This document shows positions 23,604-53,110 of a stretch of DNA of 64,000 nucleotides, in pieces. The DNA is from Onthophagus taurus (lineage: Eukaryota > Arthropoda > Insecta > Coleoptera > Scarabaeidae), in contig NC_091966.1 of assembly GCF_036711975.1 (NCBI RefSeq), positions 19,847,501-19,911,500 of the forward strand, given 5' to 3'. The position numbers were made by a program, and so were the translations under genes. Under the pieces are notes generated by a model, which saw nothing but the letters and a program-made list of their open reading frames with translations, made no database searches and was not told where the DNA came from. Position 1 is the first letter of the stretch; each line of letters opens with the position of its first letter.

Positions 23604-24839
23604 ATGGACGAAAGCAAGCCAATAGTGATAAAAGCGAAGCCCGTTAGAAGAGTAATAAGGGCAACAAGATCAAATAAAATTCCCGACGCAATTATAAACG
23701 ATAAAAAACTTCAAGCAGCTATTGAAGTGTTACCAAATAATTATAATTTTGAAATACCAAAAACGATTTGGAGAATACAAGAAACTAAAGCAAAAACGGT
23801 CGCGTTACAAATGCCCGAAGGCTTATTAATGTACTCAACAACTCTCTGTGATATAATTAGTGAATTTACTGAAGCTGATGTTATAATAATGGGTGATGTT
23901 ACATACGGAGCGTGTTGTGTAGATGATTTAACAGCAAAAAGTTTAAATGTAGACTTATTAGTACATTACGGACATAGTTGTTTAATCCCAAACGACCCTA
24001 GTAATAATTTTAAAGTGCTTTATGTATTTGTTGATATTAAAATTGATCCACTCCATTTTATTGATACGATTAAATTAAATTTTAACTCCTTAGATATTAA
24101 AATCGGATTAGTTAGCACCATACAATTTGTAACTACATTACAAGCCGTTTCGAACGAATTACAAAAATTGGGTTATAAAGTTGTTGTTCCACAATTTAAA
24201 CCGTTATCACCTGGAGAAATATTAGGTTGTACAGCACCTTTTATTGAAAATGTGGATGTTTTGGTTTATTTGGGAGATGGTAGGTTTCATTTAGAAGCCG
24301 CTATGATTGCAAATCCTAAATTAAAAGCTTACAAATATGACCCTTACTCGAAAGAGTTTACTAAAGAATATTATGAAGATGATGAAATGAAATTGAACCG
24401 TTACAAAGCAATTCAAGAAGCTAAAAATTGTAAAAAATTTGGTGTTATTATGGGTACTTTGGGTAGACAAGGAAATCCTAAAGTTGTTGATTTTATAAAA
24501 AAGAGAATTGAGTATCATAAAAAAGAATGTATGGTGATATTATTATCAGAAATATTTCCAAATAAATTAAATCTTTTTAATGAAATTGAAGCTTTCGTAC
24601 AAATTGCTTGTCCAAGATTGTCCATTGATTGGGGAAATGCTTTTCGTAGACCTTTATTGAATCCTTATGAACTAGCGGTTGCTTTGGGTGATACAAAGTG
24701 GTGTGTAGAAAAAGAAAATGATGCTTATCCCATGGATTTTTATGCTAATGATAGTTTGGGAATGTGGACACCTAATTTTAAGCCAAAAAACGATTGTATG
24801 AATACCGATAAATGTTGTGGAAAATGTACTAAGGGATAA
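23604..24839 (+). CDS. Dph1: Diphthamide synthesis protein DPH1 (2-(3-amino-3-carboxypropyl)histidine synthase subunit 1)
   Basis: With DPH2 it forms the radical-SAM-like 4Fe-4S enzyme that transfers the 3-amino-3-carboxypropyl group from S-adenosylmethionine to a histidine of elongation factor 2, the first step of diphthamide synthesis. The frame of 411 residues is intronless and close to the usual length. The family's Fe-S cysteines are present in their three contexts: GACCVDD (C104/C105), GCTAP (C209) and [10 protein letters not shown] (C336). [10 protein letters not shown] near residue 66 and GHSCLIP near 123 are conserved blocks. A Cys-rich C-terminal tail ([14 protein letters not shown]) is seen and is fairly typical of eukaryotic DPH1. 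The start is the first ATG after the intergenic region. The 3' 60% of the gene from about 24280 on is duplicated at 29457. Confidence 0.93.
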
Positions 24840-29456: not shown

Positions 29457-30021
29457 TGATGGTAGGTTTCATTTAGAAGCCGCTATGATTGCAAATCCGA
29501 AATTAAAAGCTTACAAATATGACTCTTATTCGAAAGAGTTTACTAAAGAATATTATGAAGATGATGAAATGAAATTGAACCGTTACAAAGCAATTCAAGA
29601 AGCTAAAAATTGTAAAAAATTTGGTGTTATTATGGGTACTTTGGGTAGACAAGGAAATCCTAAAGTTGTTGATTTTATAAAAAGGAGAATTGAGTATCAT
29701 AAAAAAGAATGTATGGTGATATTATTATCAGAAATATTTCCAAATAAATTAAATCTTTTTAATGAAATTGAAGCTTTCGTACAAATTGCTTGTCCAAGAT
29801 TGTCCATTGATTGGGGAAATGCTTTTCGTAGACCTTTATTGAATCCTTATGAACTAGCGGTTGCTTTGGGTGATACAAAGTGGTGTGTGGAAAAAGAAAA
29901 TGATGCCTATCCCATGGATTTTTATGCTAATGATAGTTTAGGAATGTGGACACCTAATTATAAACCAAAAAACGATTGTATGAATACCGATAAATGTTGT
30001 GGAAAATGTACTAAGGGATAA
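29457..30021 (+). pseudogene. Truncated DPH1 copy (C-terminal half)
   Basis: The frame is open from [16 protein letters not shown]-equivalent sequence to the same stop codon as DPH1, about 185 residues, with three amino-acid differences (P to S, K to R and F to Y) in the 178 residues after the first Met. The N-terminal half, with two of the three Fe-S cysteine contexts (GACC and GCTAP), is absent. Only [10 protein letters not shown] remains. No promoter or start context was recognised upstream; the junction near 29455 abuts unrelated sequence. It is best read as a non-functional 3' copy. Its coding frame has survived without stops, which is expected for a young duplicate. Confidence 0.85.
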
Positions 30022-42109: not shown

Positions 42110-43200
42110 TTAGGGATTAGAGAAGCATTTAGTGCACATTCTAATACTATGCTCATTACAGATATTATTTTTACAAGTAATACATATCATTGTGCTTTTA
42201 CGATCAATACTTGCGGGACATACTGAGCATCTTTTTCTCTTAATTGTTGCACTTGTGTGAGCGGCTGGCGGACCACATATATCAATAAATCTGCTCATAC
42301 ACTCCCGGACAGTACTCGTAGGTTAAGGTTAGTAGATCTTCTCTGCATATGTGGTATCACTAGTTTCTTCGCTAAATCTTTCAAAAACATTCTGCGTTTG
42401 TGAGTCATTCCTATGTTGTAGTTTGGATGTTCCTTCGTAAAGTCTATATATGCATTGAGTGCTGCAACATCAATGATGTTGAAGAAAAATGTCATGGGCC
42501 ATCGTTTACTTTGCCTCTTGTACGTGTATGTCGACACTATTTGATTCATGATGTCAACACCGCCCTTTGTTTTATTATAATGAGAGATTATTTCAGGCTT
42601 CCTCTTAGCGTCGTTATTGATAGATGCGTCGTGGTGTATCGTGCTTAGTAAAATTACGCATTTGTTCTTTTTATGTTCGTAACTTACCATGGATACGTTA
42701 TTTTGAAAACAAAACAATGAAGAGTTCAGTTCACAATTTCTTGTACAATAACTGGAGTTACAAATAACTGAAACGCTTCTTTTGGTGTTGCAGACATATG
42801 TTTCCTTGCTAGTCCTGGCGCACGCCGAATAATGTTGTGTGGTTGAATTTTATTTTTTGTTGGAGGTTCCAAACTCTATACCAGACCACTTGGAGCAATG
42901 TAACCGCTCGTTGAAGGCTTACCAATATCATCAACATCGTCCTCTGAATTATCGTCACCATGATCAGAACTGGATCCAGAATACTCGTCAGGAACCAATT
43001 CGAAATTTCTATCTTCTGTGTCATCATTTTCTGCTTCTGACACATCACTTTCTTCAGAAGGCAGATTATGACATACAGCTGCCCACTGCACCAATATTTC
43101 TTCATAACCGGGGTCACCAAATCTCACATTCGCTTTTCACATTCCTTTTTGACACCATTATCATACTTATGTATCTCACAAGATCACTTAATCCAACTTC
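42110..43200 (-). pseudogene. Internally deleted piggyBac transposase
   Basis: Minus strand. An acidic N-terminal part (43127-42876: DEYSGSSSDHGDDNSEDDV) is followed by a frame near 42850 with NIIRRAPGLARKHMSATPKE, then by a stop. From 42717 to 42295 come VSYEHKKNKCVILLSTIHHD, YNKTKGGVDIMNQIV (last catalytic Asp) and SKRWPMTFFFNIIDVAALNA. The last part (42298-42110) is the C-terminal cysteine-rich domain (RCSVCPASIDRKS, then CITCKNNICNEHS). The region with the first two catalytic Asp residues is deleted, so it cannot act. It may still be mobilised by a full-length relative. Confidence 0.85.
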
Positions 43201-43476
43201 TATTCAAACTGAATGAAAAACAGCTACACCTACTTTTATACATCCAACAGTAATGCACGTTTTAACTTGCACAGACACGCACAATTCCGCGCAGCAGTGT
43301 TTGATAAACTATAATAACCCTCAACCTGTAATGAACAAGTTGAAACTTGTTCTATAGTAACGGGCTTCGCAGACCCGGTTTATGCAAATACGGGGTGCTA
43401 ATGAAAACGATTTTTTTTTCGATTGGTAATTACACTTGAATATTTTTGAATAAAGTGTGTATTGAATAAAGACGTG

Positions 43477-44800
43477 AGTAGTATAGCTATGGGCGTTCTG
43501 GACCAAAATCCCATAAGATTTAACATTGGGGTCGAAAAGTACTTTTTATCCCCACCACTACCTCCTTTCGAGGGTGTAGCCACGCCCACATTTTAAATTC
43601 AACCAATCAGAGCGCAGCATTCTCCAAGAACCCTCTTTTTGGCGGGAAATTTGAATGAGGATCGACAGGCCTTATGATGATGACGTCATCATCGAGGCCG
43701 GACACAAAGCGTTTGGTTTGGCTTACCGGCTGAGTGCTATGGTGCGGGGTGCGGGCGGGCAGGGCAGGGTGGTTCAATCAGAGCATAGCATTCTCCGAGA
43801 ACCCTCTTTTAGGCTGGGGATTGAATGAGGCTACCGCCTTATCACGATGACGTCATCGTCGATATATCAAGGCCTTGACACATCCGGACACGAAGCGTTT
43901 GGCTTGGAGGTTATAAAATGATAAATATCTCGTTAACGATGCTTCAAATCGAAAAATAAACCAAAAAATTCCCCCCTACAACCCCCTGTCGCCTATAACA
44001 AATACGAACAATATGGCACGGGTGAAAACTGCCAAAAGGGCCTTATTTAGTTATCGAGCTGATGACGTCATGCCGCCGGATCGTGTGGAGCTTGGTAGGA
44101 GTGACGTCATCTAGACAACCAGTTAGGTGCGGCATTTGGGCGTGGGCCGGTAGGGGGGGCAGGGTGCGAAGTGAGGGGTGTTGGAACTTCATCGAGACCT
44201 TGATACATCCGGACACAAAGCGTTTGGTTTGGCTTACCGGCTGAGTGCTATGGTGCGGGGTGCGGGCGGGCAGGGCAGGGTGGTTCAATCGGAGCATAGC
44301 ATTCTCCGAGAACCCTCTTTTAGGCTGGGGATTGAATGAGGCTACCGCCCTATCACGATGACGTCATCGTCGATATATCGAGGCCTTGACACATCCGGAC
44401 ACGAAGCGTTTGGCTTGGAGGTTATAAAATGGTAAATATCTCGTTAACGATGCTTCAAATCGAAAAATAAACCAAAAAATTCCCCCCTACAACCCTCAAT
44501 CGCCTATAACAAGCACGAACAATATGGCACGGGTAAAAACTGCCAAAACGGCCTTATTTAGTTATCGAGCTGATGACGTCATTCCACCGGACATGTGAAC
44601 ACAAAGCGTTTGGCTTGGAGGTTATAAAATGGTAAATATCTCGTTAACGATACTTCAAATCGAAAAATAAACCAAAAAAATTCCCCCCCTACAACCGCCC
44701 GTCGCCTATAACAAGCACGAACAATATCGCACGGGTGAAAACTGCCAAAAGGGCCTTGGTTAAAACCCCTGTTCAACCGATCGGTTCAACCCCTATCCCT
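43477..44800. repeat. Left TIR of the Polinton-like element
   Basis: It matches the right arm in order, and contains two full internal repeats of about 495 bp (blocks GTTTGGCTTGGAGGTTATAA near 43900 and 44408) plus a third partial block at 44600 that the right arm lacks. A further repeat-like stretch continues to about 45060. Seven TGACGTCA palindromes occur between 43679 and 44935. GC content is far above the surroundings. Confidence 0.8.
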
Positions 44801-45346
44801 CCCTACAACCTCCTGCCGACTATAATTAGCGTGAACAACATTGCACGGGTGAAAACTGGTAAAAGGACCTTATTTAGTTATCGAGCTGATGATGTCATGC
44901 CGCCGGATCGTGTGCAGCTTGGTGGTGGTGACGTCATCTAGACAACCAGTTAGGTGAAGGATGTGTGCCAGTAGGGGGCAGTGGGTGAGGTGCGGAGTGA
45001 GGGGTGTTGGAACTTCATCAAAACCTTGATATATCCGGACACAAAAGCGTTTGGCTTGGAATTCTGCCGGGGTTCGAGCATGCGGGGAGTGAAGTGTTGG
45101 AACTTAAGAGGGTATAGAGGTGGTGGTAACCTTTATCGCAGACATGTTTATATTTACTTAATAAAAAATAAAGCAACGCTACGGTTGCTGCTAAAAAAAA
45201 ACATCACGGCAGCAGCTGTCAGTCGGGAGAGATAAGGATTAAAATAAAAAATTATAGAAGATTAGAGATTATTTATTTATTTAAAAAACCATAAATTATA
45301 TAAATTTAATAAGATACATTTATTATTATTATTACATTCTTCATAG

Positions 45347-45667
45347 ATGAAGTCGGTTTCGTTAACACACAATAAGTGTTCATTACTTTACGTGTTGGAT
45401 CATAACATTCATTCTCCACTTTTACCCAGAAATGCATTATGGGTATGTGTAGGTCCTTATGTTTCATATAACCAAACAACATTTCCGGCTAATACCCTAA
45501 TTTACATTAAAGATGCTTGTAGGCAGGCTCCAAAAAAATGTTGTCTTATCAATTCTTGGGGAATTATATTGTTTAATAATGAGAGTTTAATTCGATCCGC
45601 ACCTGTTAACAGCATGATAAGATGCGCCAATGTCCCCAGGGTAAAGTATCAACTGTCCCCGAAATAA
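45347..45667 (+). CDS. Small unrecognised ORF beside the polymerase
   Basis: A 106-codon frame starts at ATG and runs convergent with, and 62 bp into, the 3' end of the polymerase gene. I do not recognise it. It holds four Cys (CSLLY, CVGPY, CRQAPKKCC, CANV regions) and no membrane segment. It lies in the AT-rich part between the left arm and the polymerase. It may be chance; no promoter signal was seen. Confidence 0.25.
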   Translation: MKSVSLTHNKCSLLYVLDHNIHSPLLPRNALWVCVGPYVSYNQTTFPANTLIYIKDACRQAPKKCCLINSWGIILFNNESLIRSAPVNSMIRCANVPRVKYQLSPK

Positions 45668-48600
45668 TATATCTTTTATCGTCGTGAGAACTAAGTGCAG
45701 TTTTGGTTTGCGTAATTGTTGATACTTGGTGGTTTCGCGATTGAAACAATTTTTGGGTGACGAGCATTTCTTTGTCCTCTCGCAAACATACTAAGTAATC
45801 ATCGAAACTGATTACGTTTTTAACAATAGACGTTTTTATGCCTTTAGCTTTTTTAACTCTATCTCCCCCCTCCACTCGGCATGCATACATCTTCGATCTC
45901 AACCCCACAAATTCAGTCATTACCTTACCGGCGTTTTCATCTTTCATCATACCGAGAACTTTTTTATTTACACGAGGAATGTTGTATATATTATTTTCAG
46001 GATAATCACTCGTGTCGAAATATTTCGAAGCATCGCGTCGAATCACTTCATATAAATCCGGGCATTCGACTTCGTATATAAGGGAATCAGTATCGGTGTA
46101 ACAGACTCTGGCCTTGTCCCCAAATCGTCTCCTCATATACGAATAATGAAAATCATATATTTTTAATTTCGATATATCTAAAATACACATACCAACGTAG
46201 ATGGGTTTATTAAAATAAATTTCCATTTTATTGAGCTCTATAGCAACTAAATTTTCATCGAAGATAATTGAGGATTTGAAATTTGGTTTCGCGATCAACG
46301 CCTCAGCGCCGTAACGACCACCCCATTTTGTCACAAGCTTCACAATGGAATGTTTTCGAATATTTTCCATCGTCTTGCCAAATACGGCGTTGTTCATTAA
46401 TTTGAATAAATTTTTCTCGAAGTCGTTAATCGCCGCGGTTCTAAATTTAGTGTTTAAATCAATATATGATTTCAACCAAGCCGACTGTTTAAATTCCAAA
46501 ACACGATGAATTTTTGTTAAAATTAAACCATTTTCAATCGCTTGTTGTAAATTACGATAATGCAACACATATCGCTCTTTATTATATAAAGTGCCCATTA
46601 ATTTGGTTTGTTTTAAATTTGGTGGTGCACGATGTTCTGGGCAAAATGGAAGGTCACAATGTGAATCATGAATGGATTCAGGGTACTCGAGATCAACTTC
46701 TAAAATGTAACCTTCAGGGTTATCCTCAGGTACAGTGAAGTTGATGTTGTTTCCCTCAACCCACTTAAATCCGCCATAGGGTAGGTACTGAGACATTGCC
46801 CATCCATATTGATTATTGATATCATCATAAATTATAAATTTTGATGGCTCATCTGATTTATAATTAGGTAGATATTTATTATTAGCCGAGGCGTAACGTT
46901 TCGAACACTGGCTTAGACCTCCTCGTATACCTCGCTCTATAAACATTGCCATATCAATATCCGTTAATAGCTCAAGTTTTACCCTCGTATACTTCAGCAT
47001 GCAGTCCCATGTATACCCGGGCAATGTATAGTAATGAGCCGGGTCTAAGCTATACGAATTCAGGCAGCTAGCCCGAAATTTCTCGAATACGTCTGCTAAT
47101 AACAAAATATCTGTTTTCAAATATAACTCACTGTAATTTCCTAAATTTTGACAGCCAAAAGCGTTCCACACTTCATTAGCATGCGTATAATCAGTATCTG
47201 CAATGTGACTGTCGGTCATAGAGTTATAAAATTTAGATTCATCCGGTAATGCAGTTTCATTTAATTTTGTAAAAGAGTCCAAGTAATCATAAGGAAACAC
47301 TCCTTTACGCGTTAATAAATTGAATTTAGATTCATCTAAATTTGGAAATTGTGTTTTTAAATTTGGAAAGGAATCTATATAACTTGCTAATTTATCTAAA
47401 CTCGATGCCATGAACCGAAATGAATCAATAAACCGGAATTTAATTAAATTTTGGTCTATATTTTTAGTAAAAGAAATATATCGCTCCTTATTTATAGGTA
47501 GCAAATCGATGCGTCCTTCGAAATCTTTTGCTAAATTCTTTATAATAAAGTGACTATCGTACCCACTTAAATTATGAAAGACTACTGGAATCACGTGACT
47601 ATCCTGATAGTTAATGTTGCAATCCTCATGCGCAGCTCCTCGATATTTACCAGTAAGGTGACAATGGTCTCGAACTCTGACGTCACCTACGTCAAAGCGG
47701 TTTTCGCATATATGACAGCATGATAATGAGCGAAACTCCAGTTCTTGCGGTTCGGTAAGGGGTTCCATGGGTAAGGGACATAGGAATATAGTTTCCACAT
47801 CTTCCGCTAGCTGCTTCATTTCGGTCGCAAACCACTGCTGACAGTTCTCACCGGCATATGATTTGTAAAAGCTCAGGGACTCGTCATATGAGCATTTTAC
47901 GTAATAACCAATACTATATGGCTTATGTTGTGTATCAGTCTTTGTTGTTGGTATCAGAAGACATTCTAGATCCGCATACACCACAAATGGAACCGGTTCT
48001 TTATTTTGAAAATTCTTGAAATATACCATTTCACCTTCCTTCGGCATACGGATGCGGCATTCATTCATTTTAGCACAATCCTCCACGTGTTTTTCTAGAC
48101 CGGTGGAAGTGTAAAAATAGTGAAGGCAACGTTCACAGAAATATTTTTTCGTATGATGTATCGATAATTGAGATGACACTAGTCGGGATAAATCTTTTAT
48201 CCAAACGTAGTGAAATCTCGGCTTGAATTCACCATCATCATCCCCATCTTCTTCTTCTACATACTTATCTTGGATGAGTAGCAGGTTAACGTGTCTGCCT
48301 CTCCTCTCCTTAGCTAGATAGGAAGGAACTACATTATACCGCCCCTTCTTTAGTGATTCGAGAATGTACACGTTGACCGACACATCGTTTTGTTGTTCAA
48401 ACCGAGGGATTTGTTTCATGACCATCGGCATTGCTATGTTCTTCATATTTAAAACTTCTGAGTAATGTGGATACATGTAAGTTCGGTCGGTGTGATGATT
48501 GGCTGGATAAAGCGCTGAAGTCACTGCCCACGCAAAACATGCTTCATCATCGTTCTTTACATTTACACAAGCATGTTTCAACCTCAGGGCCCTAGGTAAT

Positions 48601-49316
48601 TCAATGTATGACGACCCAAGTTGTGGGGTATATTTATTAATGTTCATCTGTAGGTTTACGATCGCATTTAAAGCCCATCCACTATCTTTTTCTTGAAATT
48701 CTTCAAGGTCTTTTAGAACGGGGTCTTGAATGTTGCTCTTAAACCACTCTTCTAAATCGGTGTTGTTATAAATTGCGACATTTCTAGTATTTATATATTT
48801 AAATTCAAATACTTCCTTTCCCATTTTCTTAGTTACGAATTCACCACAAAACACAGCGTTAACTTTCAATGTTGATTTTTTCACATCATTAGTCATTCTC
48901 CTTATTATCATTTTTTTAGCATCTTCCATAAATTGTCGAGGGTCCTTGTGGGTCAGGTTAATGATGATCCCCGTTCTCATTCTGTTGGAGAACGCCGTCT
49001 GAAGGTCTTGCCATTTTACCCGCAAGCTTCTAAAGTTCTCGCGAGTCGGGTGAGTTGGTTTGTACCCGGTCCCAGTTACGTACCGGAGCGATTTTAGCAT
49101 GCTTCGGAATCCATGCATGTGACCAGCACAAGTGGTTATGTGGTGCTTTTCACCACTTGTGTTGGCTACCTTTAGCGCAGCGTTCATCACCTTAATATTA
49201 CGATTACAGTCCTTTATTGCGGGCTCTATATCTTCCCCATCAGCAGTTACAACTCTATGACGCATTTCCTCAACTAGTCTTGAAAAAGACAGGGTTTTGA
49301 CTGATGTTGAAGCCAT
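45606..49316 (-). CDS. Family-B DNA polymerase of Polinton-like element
   Basis: Replicative polymerase of the type that in Polintons and related viruses is protein-primed. The frame of 1236 residues is open and ends in the family's usual DTLPWGH. Exonuclease motifs: YADLE (447-451), HNLSGYD (581-587), YLKTD (732-736). Polymerase motifs: A, YDDINNQYGWAMS (830-842); B, KLMNNAVFGKTMEN (972-985); C, YTDTDS (1073-1078). All catalytic acidic residues are kept. Between Exo I and Exo II sits a zinc-binding insert (CCHICENRF 533-541, VRDHCHLTGKYRG 548-560) that resembles endonuclease VII. A C2HC finger (C394, C397, H410, C414) precedes Exo I. Residues 245-375 (NDDEACFAWA, then FHYVWIKDLSRL) have a Cys/His arrangement reminiscent of an OTU-like protease; this is inference. 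Motif A has Gln at 836 where relatives usually have Leu. The intact frame suggests a young or selected element. Confidence 0.9.
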   Translation of the reverse strand: MASTSVKTLSFSRLVEEMRHRVVTADGEDIEPAIKDCNRNIKVMNAALKVANTSGEKHHITTCAGHMHGFRSMLKSLRYVTGTGYKPTHPTRENFRSLRVKWQDLQTAFSNRMRTGIIINLTHKDPRQFMEDAKKMIIRRMTNDVKKSTLKVNAVFCGEFVTKKMGKEVFEFKYINTRNVAIYNNTDLEEWFKSNIQDPVLKDLEEFQEKDSGWALNAIVNLQMNINKYTPQLGSSYIELPRALRLKHACVNVKNDDEACFAWAVTSALYPANHHTDRTYMYPHYSEVLNMKNIAMPMVMKQIPRFEQQNDVSVNVYILESLKKGRYNVVPSYLAKERRGRHVNLLLIQDKYVEEEDGDDDGEFKPRFHYVWIKDLSRLVSSQLSIHHTKKYFCERCLHYFYTSTGLEKHVEDCAKMNECRIRMPKEGEMVYFKNFQNKEPVPFVVYADLECLLIPTTKTDTQHKPYSIGYYVKCSYDESLSFYKSYAGENCQQWFATEMKQLAEDVETIFLCPLPMEPLTEPQELEFRSLSCCHICENRFDVGDVRVRDHCHLTGKYRGAAHEDCNINYQDSHVIPVVFHNLSGYDSHFIIKNLAKDFEGRIDLLPINKERYISFTKNIDQNLIKFRFIDSFRFMASSLDKLASYIDSFPNLKTQFPNLDESKFNLLTRKGVFPYDYLDSFTKLNETALPDESKFYNSMTDSHIADTDYTHANEVWNAFGCQNLGNYSELYLKTDILLLADVFEKFRASCLNSYSLDPAHYYTLPGYTWDCMLKYTRVKLELLTDIDMAMFIERGIRGGLSQCSKRYASANNKYLPNYKSDEPSKFIIYDDINNQYGWAMSQYLPYGGFKWVEGNNINFTVPEDNPEGYILEVDLEYPESIHDSHCDLPFCPEHRAPPNLKQTKLMGTLYNKERYVLHYRNLQQAIENGLILTKIHRVLEFKQSAWLKSYIDLNTKFRTAAINDFEKNLFKLMNNAVFGKTMENIRKHSIVKLVTKWGGRYGAEALIAKPNFKSSIIFDENLVAIELNKMEIYFNKPIYVGMCILDISKLKIYDFHYSYMRRRFGDKARVCYTDTDSLIYEVECPDLYEVIRRDASKYFDTSDYPENNIYNIPRVNKKVLGMMKDENAGKVMTEFVGLRSKMYACRVEGGDRVKKAKGIKTSIVKNVISFDDYLVCLREDKEMLVTQKLFQSRNHQVSTITQTKTALSSHDDKRYIISGTVDTLPWGHWRILSCC

Positions 49317-50429
49317 TCTAGAACAGCGAAAATTGCGGTTATAACTTCTCGCATGAGATGCAGGATATTAATAAGTTTTTGTCTAATATCAAAGCCTTAT
49401 ATACACATTTTAATTAAAGAAACAAGTTTTGATAATTATTATAATTGGGAAATAACTTTTGATAATCATTAAATCGAAAATAAATTATCTGTTAAGGGGA
49501 AGCTAATTATAATATAGAAACTCTACGTGTGGACATGAGTTAATACGCCGGTGACCTTGATAAACATATAGGATTGTTTAAAAATAATTGCAAGTGTCAT
49601 CACAATTTTTAAAGTTATTTTTAAATTTATATATGCAACATACACATTATACTTGCACGTTTTATGATAATATTACGCAACATTACGTAATCATCAGCTT
49701 CAACACCATATTCATTCGGACAATTACGAAAATGACTACGCTTATATCAGGGGAGCGACTTCATATCAAAGGATAGCTAAGGTAAACACTTAAATAATGA
49801 TATGAAGATGATGTGAATGTTCAATATTAATTTACGCTTTAGCAGAAAATCCTATTTTTATATGTATGTATACATATAACCAAAGCCCGGACAGTTTAGG
49901 AAAGTGATCCTAAAACGCCTCCCACTCCAGTCTCAATATTCAATGAACTAAATCGAAGCGTACGCTTATCAAGGTATACGTTTAGTGTGGAGGGGGCGCA
50001 CGTTTCCTAAACTGTCCGGGCTCTGCAATAACAATCTAGCGCGTGACCTTGAGATAACTAACGTGATAATCGAAGAATTCCCACACTTACATGATATTAA
50101 ATCCGCAAACGACGGAAGTTGATGTTCAACTGACCGATTTATAAATTGCTAGGTAAATTTGATAGGTAGCTGCGGCCCCCCCCCCTCTACTTCCTTAATA
50201 AATTATTATTTAATTTCCTCTCACGTCAACCCGTTCATCAACGATTCCCATCATTGTTCCAAAAAAACATAATTATTTATTAATTTTAAAAAATCTTTTA
50301 TACTTGCACGTTTTATGTTTTCTGGATTATCTTAATAAACTTTAACAATTTTACTTATAATATTACGCAACATTACGTAATCATCAGCTTCAACACCGCG
50401 CGGGCTGTAGATCATGATCTATCCAGGCT
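49317..50429. other. Non-coding interior of the Polinton-like element
   Basis: The upstream region of the polymerase gene. It holds a direct repeat (TACTTGCACGTTTTATG, then ATTACGTAATCATCAGCTTC, at 49650-49707 and 50301-50397, the second with an extra 40 bp). It also holds a MITE-like hairpin with 20-bp arms AGCCCGGACAGTTTAGGAAA at about 49883-50025. No second gene was seen. Confidence 0.6.
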
Positions 50430-51568
50430 AGGTCTTAGGGGGGGACAGGGGTTGAACCGGTATTCAACCGGTTGAACAGGGGTTGAACCAACGCCCTTTT
50501 GGCAGTTTTCACCCGTGCCATATTGTTCGTGCTTGTTATAGGCGATTGGGGGTTGTAGGGGGGAATTTTTTGGTTTATTTTTTGATTTGAAGCATCGTTA
50601 ACGAGATATTTACCATTTTATAACCTCCAAGCCAAACGCTTCGTGTCCGGATGTGTCAAGGCCTCGATATATCGACGATGACGTCATCGTGATAAGGCGG
50701 TAGCCTCATTCAATCCCCAGCCTAAAAGAGGGTTCTCGGAGAATGCTATGCTCCGATTGAACCACCCTGCCCTGCCCGCCTGCACCCCGCACCATAGCAC
50801 TCAGCCGGTAAGCCAAACCAAACGCTTTGTGTCCGGATGTATCAAGGTCTCGATGAAGTTCCAACACCCCTCACTTCGCACCCTGCCCCCCCTACCGGCC
50901 CACGCCCAAATGCCGCACCTAACTGGTTGTCTAGATGACGTCACCACTACCAAGCTCCACACGATCCGGCGGCATGACGTCATCAGCTCGATAACTAAAT
51001 AAGGCCCTTTTGGCAGTTTTCACCCGTGCCATATTGTTCGTATTTGTTACAGGCGACAGGGGGTTGTAGGGGGGAATTTTTTGGTTTATTTTTCGATTTG
51101 AAGCATCGTTAACGAGATATTTACCATTTTATAACCTCCAAGCCAAACGCTTCGTGTCCGGATGTGTCAAGGCCTTGATATATCGACGATGACGTCATCG
51201 TGATAAGGCGGTAGCCTCATTCAATCCCCAGCCTAAAAGAGGGTTCTCGGAGAATGCTATGCTCTGATTGAACCACCCTGCCCTGCCCGCCCGCACCCCG
51301 CACCATAGCACTCAGCCGGTAAGCCAAACCAAACGCTTTGTGTCCGGCCTCGATGATGACGTCATCATCATAAGGCCTGTCGATCCTCATTCAAATTTCC
51401 CGCCAAAAAGAGGGTTCTTGGAGAATGCTGCGCTCTGATTGGTTGAATTTAAAATGTGGGCGTGGCTACACCCTCGAAAGGAGGTAGTGGTGGGGATAAA
51501 AAGTACTTTTCGACCCCAATGTTAAATCTTATGGGATTTTGGTCCAGAACGCCCATAGCTATACTACT
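50430..51568. repeat. Right TIR of the Polinton-like element
   Basis: Reverse complement of the left arm, colinear through both 495-bp internal repeats, with five TGACGTCA palindromes. It lacks the third repeat block of the left arm, and both arms end at a CCCTGTTCAACCG-type sequence (50470-50500; left 44766). Confidence 0.8.
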
Positions 51569-51679
51569 GACGTGTTTAGAGCATATCTAAATGCTCAAGC
51601 CGATTGAAATTATTTTAAGAAAATTATGAGTAACTACAATCTCGCCGGGCCTGAGAGGCCCGGTTTATGCATCCTAGGG

Positions 51680-53110
51680 TTAATATGAGAGTGAATAAAA
51701 CAGCCCTTACGAAGTCAGAGCAATTAAATCTGACCACGCTTCTCGTCAGGTGAGATGTTTTAGTATATTTAGCAACTATCAGATCTTTGGCGACTGCCGT
51801 CGTTAATACTGGTCGAATTTCTTTATCATAGAGGTGAATAAAAGAGCGCTTATGAAGTCAGAGCAAGTAACTCTGGCCACGCTATGCGACAGGTGGGATG
51901 TTTTAGTATATTTAGCAACTATCAAATTTTTGGGGACTGCCGTCGTTAACACAGGGCGATTTTTTTTAATATGGTGTTGAATAAAACAGCCCTTACGAAG
52001 TCAGAGCAAGTAACTCTGGCCACGCTATTCGACAGGTGGGATGTTTTAGTACATTTAGCAATAATCAGATGTTTGGGGACTGCCGTCGATAACACAGGGC
52101 GAATTTTTTAATATGGGGGTGAATAAAACAGCCCTTACGAAGTCAGAGCAATTAAATCTGGCCACGCTATTCGTCAGGTGGGATGTTTTAGTATATTTAG
52201 CAACTATCAGATCTTTGGGGACTGCCATCGTTAACACAGGGCGAATTTCCTTATCATAGAGGTGAATAAAAGAGCGCTTATGAAGTTAGAGCAAGTAACT
52301 CTGGCCACTCTATTCGACAGGTGGGATGTTTTAGTATACTTAGCAACTATCAGATTTTTGGAGACTGCCGTCGTTAACACAGTTCGATTTTTTTAATATG
52401 GGAGTGAATAAAACAGCCCTTACGAAGTCAGCGCAGAGTTGGGGAGTATCCTGATACTTCTGTATCCGGATACAGTATCCGTATACTTTTTGAGTATCCG
52501 ATACTCTGTATTCGGATACTTTTCAAATTTTATATCCGGTATCCGTGACTAAATCTGAAAGTATCCAGATACTTTTTTCGGTGTTCGGATACCTTTTAAT
52601 TGAGTTTTTTTATTTCCTATTCTATTATTACACACGTACATATACACCAAAGTGTTTGAATCCCCATTTTTTTCAGTTTCTTCTACGATTGTACATCTTT
52701 TATGACTACATCAATAATTGTGGCATGTTGGCATGTAACATGTTGGAAGTTAGTTGTTCTTCTCTTTTATTATTGTGGGAAAATCAAGGGCTCTCTCTCC
52801 GACTAGAATTTGTACACTAAATTTCCCCTTCTAGAAAAAATTCAAGGAACTTATTCCGAAAATTGCCGGATACATGTATTCGAATACTTTTATGGAGAAA
52901 GTATCCCCACATTTTTAAGAAAGTATCCGGATACATTGTATGTATCCGGTATCCGAATACTCGAATACTTTTTTCCTGTACCCGTCCCAGCTCTGAGTCA
53001 GAGCAAATAAATGTGACCACGCTATTCCATAGGTGGGATGTTTTAGTATATTTAACAAATATTAGATTTTGTGGGTCTGCCCTTGTTAACACAGGGCGAA
53101 TTGATCGACC
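51680..53110. repeat. Satellite of about 143 bp, six to seven monomers
   Basis: GTGAATAAAA starts recur at about 51691, 51834, 51974, 52119, 52261 and 52404 (141-145 bp apart), and a last unit runs from 52996 to 53100. Each has GAAGTCAGAGCAA, GGGATGTTTTAGTATATTTA and GGGGACTGCCGTCGTTAACA. Alternating variants (AAACAGCCCTTACG and AAGAGCGCTTATG) suggest some higher-order pattern. It is non-coding, and is interrupted by the hAT element at 52434. Confidence 0.9.
52434..52995. mobile_element. hAT-type MITE in the satellite
   Basis: Termini CAGAGTTGGG and CCCAGCTCTG are flanked by AGTCAGCG (52426-52433) and AGTCAGAG (52996-53003), a 7/8 match of an 8-bp duplication. Adjacent to both ends are dense GTATCCGGATAC-type palindromic motifs (52465-52600 and 52865-52975). 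It is 562 bp and non-coding. Confidence 0.8.

What the first reader, a model, noticed from the sequence alone, without database searches (positions are those of the whole stretch)
43477..51568. Small Polinton-like element that carries only a DNA polymerase
An 8.09-kb unit has a perfect 6-bp duplication (GACGTG), AG-start termini, TIRs over 1.1 kb and an undamaged 1236-codon family-B polymerase, but lacks integrase, ATPase, protease and capsid genes. Typical Polintons are about twice as long. An open polymerase frame in a non-autonomous element is unexpected unless the insertion is very recent or the polymerase itself is what is maintained. It could be a self-replicating linear-plasmid-like or reduced type that borrows an integrase.
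Basis: partly seen in the sequence, partly recalled or inferred. Interest (0 to 1): 0.8.

Follow-up and report, generated by a model that had tools for sequence, protein, structure and literature searches.

The report
Polymerase-only Polinton-like mobile element family
This is one of about a dozen copies, in an insect-like genome, of a small jumping DNA element that has kept only its own DNA-copying enzyme and seems to borrow the insertion enzyme from larger virus-like relatives, which suggests that such elements can split their genes between partners.

Summary
In detail: 43477-51568 is an 8,092-bp insertion with a perfect 6-bp duplication, 1,079-bp TIRs (98.98%) and one intact 1,236-aa family-B polymerase frame. 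It is not a single deletion product: the same genome holds 12 facing pairs of these arms, 7.2-8.5 kb apart, 9 of them with perfect 6-bp duplications. All 12 contain the polymerase; integrase, capsid, protease or ATPase was found in none of the parts read. The one longer pair (13.5 kb) is a chimera with another, broken polymerase. Polymerase variants shared between copies show purifying selection (N/S ratio 0.30, no stops); private ones look neutral (0.85-0.90). A second small gene beside the polymerase is broken in 10 of 11 copies searched (one barely covered). A full-size Polinton of this genome carries the same end signal (AGTAGTATA-N9-GTTCTGGA: 110 sites genome-wide, reversed control 0), so resident integrases probably insert this element in trans while its own protein-primed polymerase copies it. 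The genome also holds the reciprocal type: about 12-kb elements with capsid, protease, ATPase and integrase but no polymerase. Verdict: a new polymerase-only variant of the Polinton kind; a true bipartite Polinton is possible but unproven.

The parts
43471..43476 (.). left target-site duplication GACGTG
   Evidence: sequence
51569..51574 (.). right target-site duplication GACGTG
   Evidence: sequence
43477..44555 (+). left TIR, 1,079 bp, with internal repeats at a 511-bp offset
50490..51568 (-). right TIR, 1,079 bp, 98.98% identical to the left one
43477..43502 (+). end signal AGTAGTATA-N9-GTTCTGGA shared with other Polinton families
   Evidence: 110 sites in the genome, reversed control 0
51543..51568 (-). 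same end signal at the right end
45606..49316 (-). family-B DNA polymerase, 1,236 aa, intact
48177..48569 (-). putative vOTU-like protease region of the polymerase (about aa 250-380; Cys260, His369)
   Evidence: Cys and His aligned in the window and the 2 relatives that cover them; identity inferred from PMC11071308; model of aa 1-420 too poor to test it, mean pLDDT 41
47613..47723 (-). endonuclease VII-like zinc module inside the exonuclease region (aa 532-568)
   Evidence: Pfam E 0.0021, below its cut-off; PHROG E 0.00063
46149..47585 (-). DNA_pol_B_2 match (about aa 578-1056)
45369..45615 (-). remains of a second gene (155 aa in a related element): two pieces in different frames, one with a stop

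Best explanation
The element belongs to a recently active, multi-copy, Polinton-derived family whose only open gene is its own protein-primed family-B polymerase. Shown: structure, copies, target duplications, selection on the polymerase during spread, absence of its own integrase, and a terminal signal shared with integrase-bearing Polintons. Inferred: the N-terminal region of the polymerase primes replication at the TIR ends of its own element, and an integrase from a resident Polinton with the same ends inserts the linear copy with a 6-bp stagger. It is thus self-replicating but depends on others for integration and, if it is ever packaged, for capsids.
For: 12 facing TIR pairs of 7.2-8.5 kb, 9 with perfect 6-bp duplications; all 12 hold the polymerase, six of them in open full-length frames. 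Shared polymerase variants 26 synonymous / 31 nonsynonymous / 0 stop, private ones 24 / 80 / 5; ratios 0.30 and 0.85-0.90, Fisher p 0.004. Against an old relic dS 0.166, dN 0.051. The neighbouring 155-aa gene is broken in 10 of 11 copies searched, the 11th covered over 39 residues only. A full-size Polinton, C24:450668-465900, shares the end signal though the rest of its TIR differs; 110 such sites, reversed control 0. Polinton integrase rings in 128 places, all but two rows without stops.
Against: No extrachromosomal form, transcript or protein was seen. Three of 12 pairs lack a matching duplication. Shared variants may have been selected in a source element that is not in this assembly. A C3 chimera has A-type ends around another family's polymerase, so ends and polymerase are not strictly tied. 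An ATPase fragment overlaps the outer edge of the old relic, and degraded capsid-region genes lie outside the TIRs of two copies; I read these as neighbours, not parts.
Confidence: 0.7

Rival explanations
1. Bipartite (split) Polinton: the polymerase-only and the polymerase-less, capsid- and integrase-bearing elements of this genome are two segments of one replicating system, each supplying what the other lacks.
For: Polymerase-less family B: C6:27856153-27867890, read completely, and C2:27795909-27807853; its junction at 98-100% in 10 loci. B carries two tandem internal copies of the window TIR module (84%) and the second polymerase-less family F one (92%). Both types are multi-copy.
Against: The shared module is internal in B and F, not terminal. 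Full-size Polintons with their own polymerase and integrase are present and could serve either type. The termini of A and B differ beyond the common signal. No co-replication or co-packaging data.
Confidence: 0.15
2. Ordinary non-autonomous deletion derivative: the polymerase frame is only a passenger that has not yet decayed, and everything is supplied in trans.
For: The copies are young. Short derivatives of other families with the same end signal exist, such as C2:9164422-9164953, 532 bp.
Against: Purifying selection on shared variants and against the relic; the gene beside it is broken while the polymerase is open in six copies; none of the 12 pairs lacks the polymerase; no parent with this polymerase and other genes was found, the next polymerases being 53% identical or less.
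Confidence: 0.07
3. The copies are integrated defective genomes or one segment of an exogenous PolB virus that is not in the assembly.
For: Identical structure in many copies, no full-size parent with this polymerase found in the genome; multi-segment bidna-like viruses are described (PMC8363768, passages).
Against: Old relics of the same layout are in the chromosomes; the termini match resident Polintons; nothing similar in viral contigs or phages, though those collections are not made for insect viruses.
Confidence: 0.08

Closest known systems
Polintons / Mavericks (including adintoviruses)
   Same: 6-bp target duplication, long TIRs, AG...CT termini, protein-primed type family-B polymerase; one full-size Polinton of this genome shares the end signal.
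   Different: No integrase, ATPase, protease or capsid gene; about half the length.
Integrase-less Polinton-like viruses supposed to use resident Polinton integrases in trans (PMC4642659, passages)
   Same: The idea of integration by a resident integrase in trans.
   Different: Those keep the capsid module; this element has none and keeps the replicase.
Bidnaviruses and the multi-segment Vesanto virus (PMC4061559 and PMC8363768, passages)
   Same: Small DNA with terminal repeats and a Polinton-derived PolB, and other genes on other segments.
   Different: Those have parvovirus-type capsid genes and are free viruses; here integrated copies with target duplications.
Linear plasmids with protein-primed PolB (PMC11071308, section 9 and passages)
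   Same: PolB with an N-terminal priming region; terminal inverted repeats (the latter recalled).
   Different: Those are free plasmids; here chromosomal copies, no free form tested.

Membership tests
Polinton/Maverick | 6-bp target-site duplication | tested here: met
   window GACGTG; 9 of 12 pairs
Polinton/Maverick | terminal inverted repeats with AG...CT ends (end rule recalled) | tested here: met
Polinton/Maverick | family-B polymerase of the protein-primed type | tested here: met
   PF03175 E 4.2e-26, motifs; protein priming itself not tested
Polinton/Maverick | N-terminal terminal-protein fold followed by vOTU with Cys and His (PMC11071308) | tested here: inconclusive
   Cys260 and His369 aligned with 2 relatives; structure model too poor
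Polinton/Maverick | retroviral-type integrase | tested here: not met
   no match in element or window
Polinton/Maverick | packaging ATPase, cysteine protease, capsid protein | tested here: not met
   no match in element or window
Polinton/Maverick | length about 15-20 kb | tested here: not met
   8,092 bp; family 7.2-8.5 kb
Bidnaviridae | parvovirus-type capsid and superfamily 3 helicase genes | tested here: not met
   no other open gene of note in the element; no specific profile search was made
Linear protein-primed plasmid | extrachromosomal linear DNA with protein-bound ends | not testable with these tools
   needs host DNA

The most novel reading that the evidence does not exclude
A bipartite Polinton in an animal genome: one chromosomal element carries only the replicase, another carries integrase plus the virion module but no replicase. 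Both are multi-copy with intact genes in many copies and are linked by a related terminal signal and a shared sequence module, as if a virus-like transposon had evolved a segmented genome inside its host.
Probability: 0.15. Interest if true: 0.88.

Novelty: new variant of a known kind. Interest (0 to 1): 0.62.

Why it matters
Polintons are described as self-contained virus-like transposons. A selected, mobile element that keeps only the replicase, beside elements that keep everything but the replicase, shows that this genome divides the functions of one element among several. It makes two questions directly testable: whether Polinton integrases act in trans on any DNA with the right ends, and whether segmented PolB viruses such as bidnaviruses could arise from such splitting.

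Tried and rejected
Integrase-only sister element: at C3:15908722 an 82%-similar TIR is followed by integrase-like frames; these sit between their own 136-bp inverted repeats (96%) and are a nested transposon, probably Ginger/KRBA2-like (name recalled), so not a partner.

TIR-TIR divergence as a clock: rejected. Among the five most similar copies the mismatches 445, 623, 788, 874, 1020, 1059, 1073 and 1077 recur, so they are inherited. All of these lie beyond position 444, so the outer ends may be homogenised; the sample is small.

Full-size copy with identical arms: the 13.46-kb A-type pair on C3 was read and holds a broken polymerase of another family (47-48% to the window's, best pieces) plus unrelated frames; no integrase, capsid, ATPase or protease match.

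Viral contigs and phages gave nothing. PDB sequence search gave two chance-level hits (E 0.29 and 0.3). The model of aa 1-420 was too poor to use, so no fold search was made.

Papers: the listings (titles and starts of abstracts seen) showed no polymerase-only or polymerase-less Polinton; the phrase 'nonautonomous polinton' gave 0 papers. Passages only were seen of PMC11071308 (plus its section 9), PMC4061559, PMC6035795, PMC8097293, PMC6431247, PMC8363768, PMC4642659 and PMC12721341. Most subscription papers and the Repbase reports are not held, so this does not show that it is unpublished.
Full report
WHAT IS THERE. The element runs from 43477 to 51568 (8,092 bp). GACGTG flanks it on both sides, both ends read AGTAGTATAGC, and the TIRs match without gaps over 1,079 bp with 11 mismatches. 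Inside is one long frame, 45606-49316 minus, 1,236 aa. Its C-terminal 664 aa match Pfam DNA_pol_B_2 at E 4.2e-26, and the same stretch scores 91.3 bits in the genome search; the scan of the full-length protein did not list this family. Exonuclease motifs, an endonuclease VII-like module between Exo I and Exo II, and the polymerase motifs DINNQYG, KLMNNAVFG and YTDTDS align with relatives from the genome (motif names recalled). Cys260 and His369 sit where a vOTU protease of Polinton polymerases is described (PMC11071308, section 9) and are conserved in the two relatives that cover them. The structure prediction was too poor to test this, so the protease is an inference.

NO OTHER WORKING GENE. 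Nine other Polinton-borne proteins of this genome found nothing in the element or the window. One remnant was found: just downstream of the polymerase, 45369-45615 minus, lie two pieces in different frames, one with a stop, of a 155-aa gene that is open in a related element at C4:2337290-2337757. The best Pfam match of that gene is weak (Acetyltransf_2, E 0.051), so its function is open.

A FAMILY, NOT A SINGLE DELETION PRODUCT. The host genome is held (290.8 Mb, 33 contigs). The first 300 bp of the TIR matched 106 pieces from 40 scored of 135 candidates. They form 12 facing pairs 8130, 8121, 8101, 8111, 8092 (window), 7909, 7493, 7194, 8481, 8161, 7645 and 7801 bp long; 9 of 12 have perfect 6-bp duplications, and C11:1540009, C7:34858812 and C9:84794 do not. 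Two pairs (C8:9884262 and C8:10740946) share duplication and left flank, so they are one insertion duplicated with its surroundings or held twice in the assembly; 11 pairs are independent. The polymerase query gave 43 matches from 37 scored of 756 candidates: six stop-free full-length frames at 98-100% identity, then broken or partial copies at 90-99% (one short relic piece at 69%), then nothing until 53% and below. All 12 pairs contain the polymerase, intact or broken. Of the 12, the window and four others (C11:12.48, C11:1.54, C8:13.0, C5:14.51) were read from end to end, six with gaps of about 0.1-1.0 kb, and C8:10.74 with a 4.1-kb gap that its polymerase match fills (loci). Within the TIRs no Polinton gene but the polymerase and the remnant was found.

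YOUNG, AND SELECTED. The polymerase frames of the window and C11:1.54 copies differ at 0 of 3,711 bases, and 4,701 bases around them at one. Over 12 polymerase rows, some partial, variants carried by at least two copies were 26 synonymous, 31 nonsynonymous and 0 stop; private ones 24, 80 and 5; 4 columns with more than two states were dropped. The ratios are 0.30 and 0.85 (0.90 with stops). Shared variants depart from neutrality (p 1.7e-5), private ones do not (p 0.63), and the classes differ (Fisher p 0.004). So the polymerase mattered while the family spread and is unconstrained after insertion. Among the youngest copies pairwise ratios are about 1 or more, on very few changes. The neighbouring small gene is an internal control: of 11 copies searched, 9 show a stop; C8:13.0 was covered over only 33 residues there but shows a stop over 88 residues; C9:87 was covered over 39 residues, without a lesion. 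C5 was not searched.

OLD AS A POLYMERASE-ONLY LINEAGE. A relic at C8:16767267-16772735 (polymerase dS 0.166, dN 0.051, ratio 0.31) shows TIR piece, spacer pieces, polymerase and TIR piece in the window's order. Against this, an ATPase fragment (57% identity) lies at 16772695-16772931 and overlaps the outer edge of its TIR; I read it as debris of another Polinton. Two young copies have degraded capsid-region genes outside their TIRs, at C11:1548626-1549066 and C8:13000169-13001144. C3:15908722, C3:11608538 and C10:14520073 are further old relics (TIR 82-85%; only the last shows polymerase).

WHO SUPPLIES THE INTEGRASE. A double-jelly-roll capsid query (PF21738, E 1.2e-110) rings in 104 places, and a Polinton integrase (rve, E 1.9e-13) in 128, all but two rows without internal stops. 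One full-size element, C24:450668-465900 (TSD CTCCCA, TIR 414 bp at 99.0%), starts AGTAGTATA-N9-GTTCTGGA like the window element, although no similarity of their TIRs was found beyond the first 40 or so bases. This pattern occurs 110 times in the genome, its reversed control 0 times (100 places listed). Facing pairs include the window family, a 15.2-kb and a 19.8-kb family. The simplest reading is one integrase signal shared by several families. Integration by resident Polinton integrases in trans was proposed before for integrase-less Polinton-like viruses (PMC4642659, passages).

THE RECIPROCAL TYPE. C6:27856153-27867890 (11,738 bp, TSD GTTATA, TIR 1,577 bp at 99.75%) holds 169-aa, capsid, 235-aa, protease (weak, Peptidase_C48 E 0.0063, below cut-off), 145-aa, ATPase (Pox_A32, E 8.4e-9), PLA2-like (E 5.7e-15), 371-aa, 133-aa and integrase genes and no polymerase; its whole length was read in three pieces. 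A second copy is C2:27795909-27807853 (11,945 bp, TSD GATAAC, ends AGTAGTGTA-N9-ATTCTGGA); 27797901-27804299 of it was not read. The junction of TIR and capsid side, which leaves no room for a polymerase there, is present at 98-100% in 10 loci, one of them shorter, and in the nine of these with both genes listed the capsid-integrase span is 6,665-6,718 bp (coordinates); one capsid frame (C22) has a stop. A second such family, F, lies at about C8:14439889-14449378: 14434500-14441000 holds no polymerase, its ends and duplication were not found, and the stretch between capsid and integrase was not read. B carries two tandem internal copies of the window TIR module (84%; a third in the TIR of the C2 copy, 72%) and F one (92%); they face outward like buried former ends. 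End exchange is visible directly: the C6 copy shares its first 247 bp (95-100%) with a family that holds two polymerases in inverted order (C4:2331042-2344160, TSD AATGTG; C8:14204888-14220461; C11:11124153-11139235). In the C4 member no integrase or capsid was found in the pieces read; 2339501-2340999 was not read.

HOW IT PROBABLY WORKS. Shown: recent mobility, selection on the polymerase, no integrase of its own, an end signal shared with integrase-bearing elements. Inferred: the N-terminal region of the polymerase is the primer protein at its own TIR ends; strand-displacement synthesis yields linear copies; a resident Polinton integrase inserts them with a 6-bp stagger. A need in cis is suggested by the selection and by the lack of polymerase-free copies among the 12 pairs. 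But the C3 chimera (A-type ends around another family's broken polymerase; GATGAG on both sides, one mismatch in the left end) shows that ends and polymerases can be re-matched.

COMPARISON. It works like a Polinton for replication and like a non-autonomous transposon for integration. Because integrase, ATPase, protease and capsid were tested and not met, I do not file it as a complete Polinton but as a polymerase-only variant. The bipartite reading has a precedent in multi-segment bidna-like viruses (PMC8363768, PMC4061559; passages) but lacks a decisive link here.

LIMITS. The genome search scores only the best candidates, so copy numbers are lower bounds and absences are not absolute. No dates are given because no mutation rate is known for this host.

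Noticed in passing
43477-44555 and 50490-51568: The CRE-like palindrome TGACGTCA occurs 13 times in the element, 5 in each TIR, of 14 in the whole window; young copies keep 4-5 per TIR, old relics 0-3 in shorter pieces. Possibly a promoter or origin signal.
   Followed up: partly
G000:C9:77075-92594: Two copies of the family fused head to tail: the outer ends share the duplication GAGTTG while an inner left end follows truncated TIR sequence. Might reflect recombination with a free linear copy.
   Followed up: partly
G000:C4:2331042-2344160 (L068-L070), C8:14204888-14220461, C11:11124153-11139235: Elements with two polymerase genes in inverted order; in the C4 one the inverted repeats are at least 3.1 kb at 99.7%.
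   Followed up: partly
L043:1609-3237 (C8:20.66 Mb) and L060 (C4:2578784-2580451): A matrix-metalloprotease gene (Matrixin, E 9.7e-35) inside the 19.8-kb Polinton family; a similar-looking frame in L060 was judged by eye.
   Followed up: partly
L066:3602-3973 and L047:640-987: Phospholipase A2-like gene (PF08398, E 5.7e-15 for the L066 one) in a polymerase-less and a full-size Polinton; the L047 frame was judged by eye.
   Followed up: partly
G000:C2:9164422-9164953: A 532-bp facing pair with the Polinton end signal, a MITE-like derivative.
   Followed up: no
23604-24839 and 29485-30021: A DPH1-like gene and a partial, nearly identical 3' copy of it 6 kb away (by eye).
   Followed up: no
51691-52435: A 143-bp tandem array directly right of the element; pieces recur near 41.8 kb and 53.0 kb.
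   Followed up: no
42295-43127: Broken piggyBac-like transposase frames just left of the element (recognised by eye).
   Followed up: no
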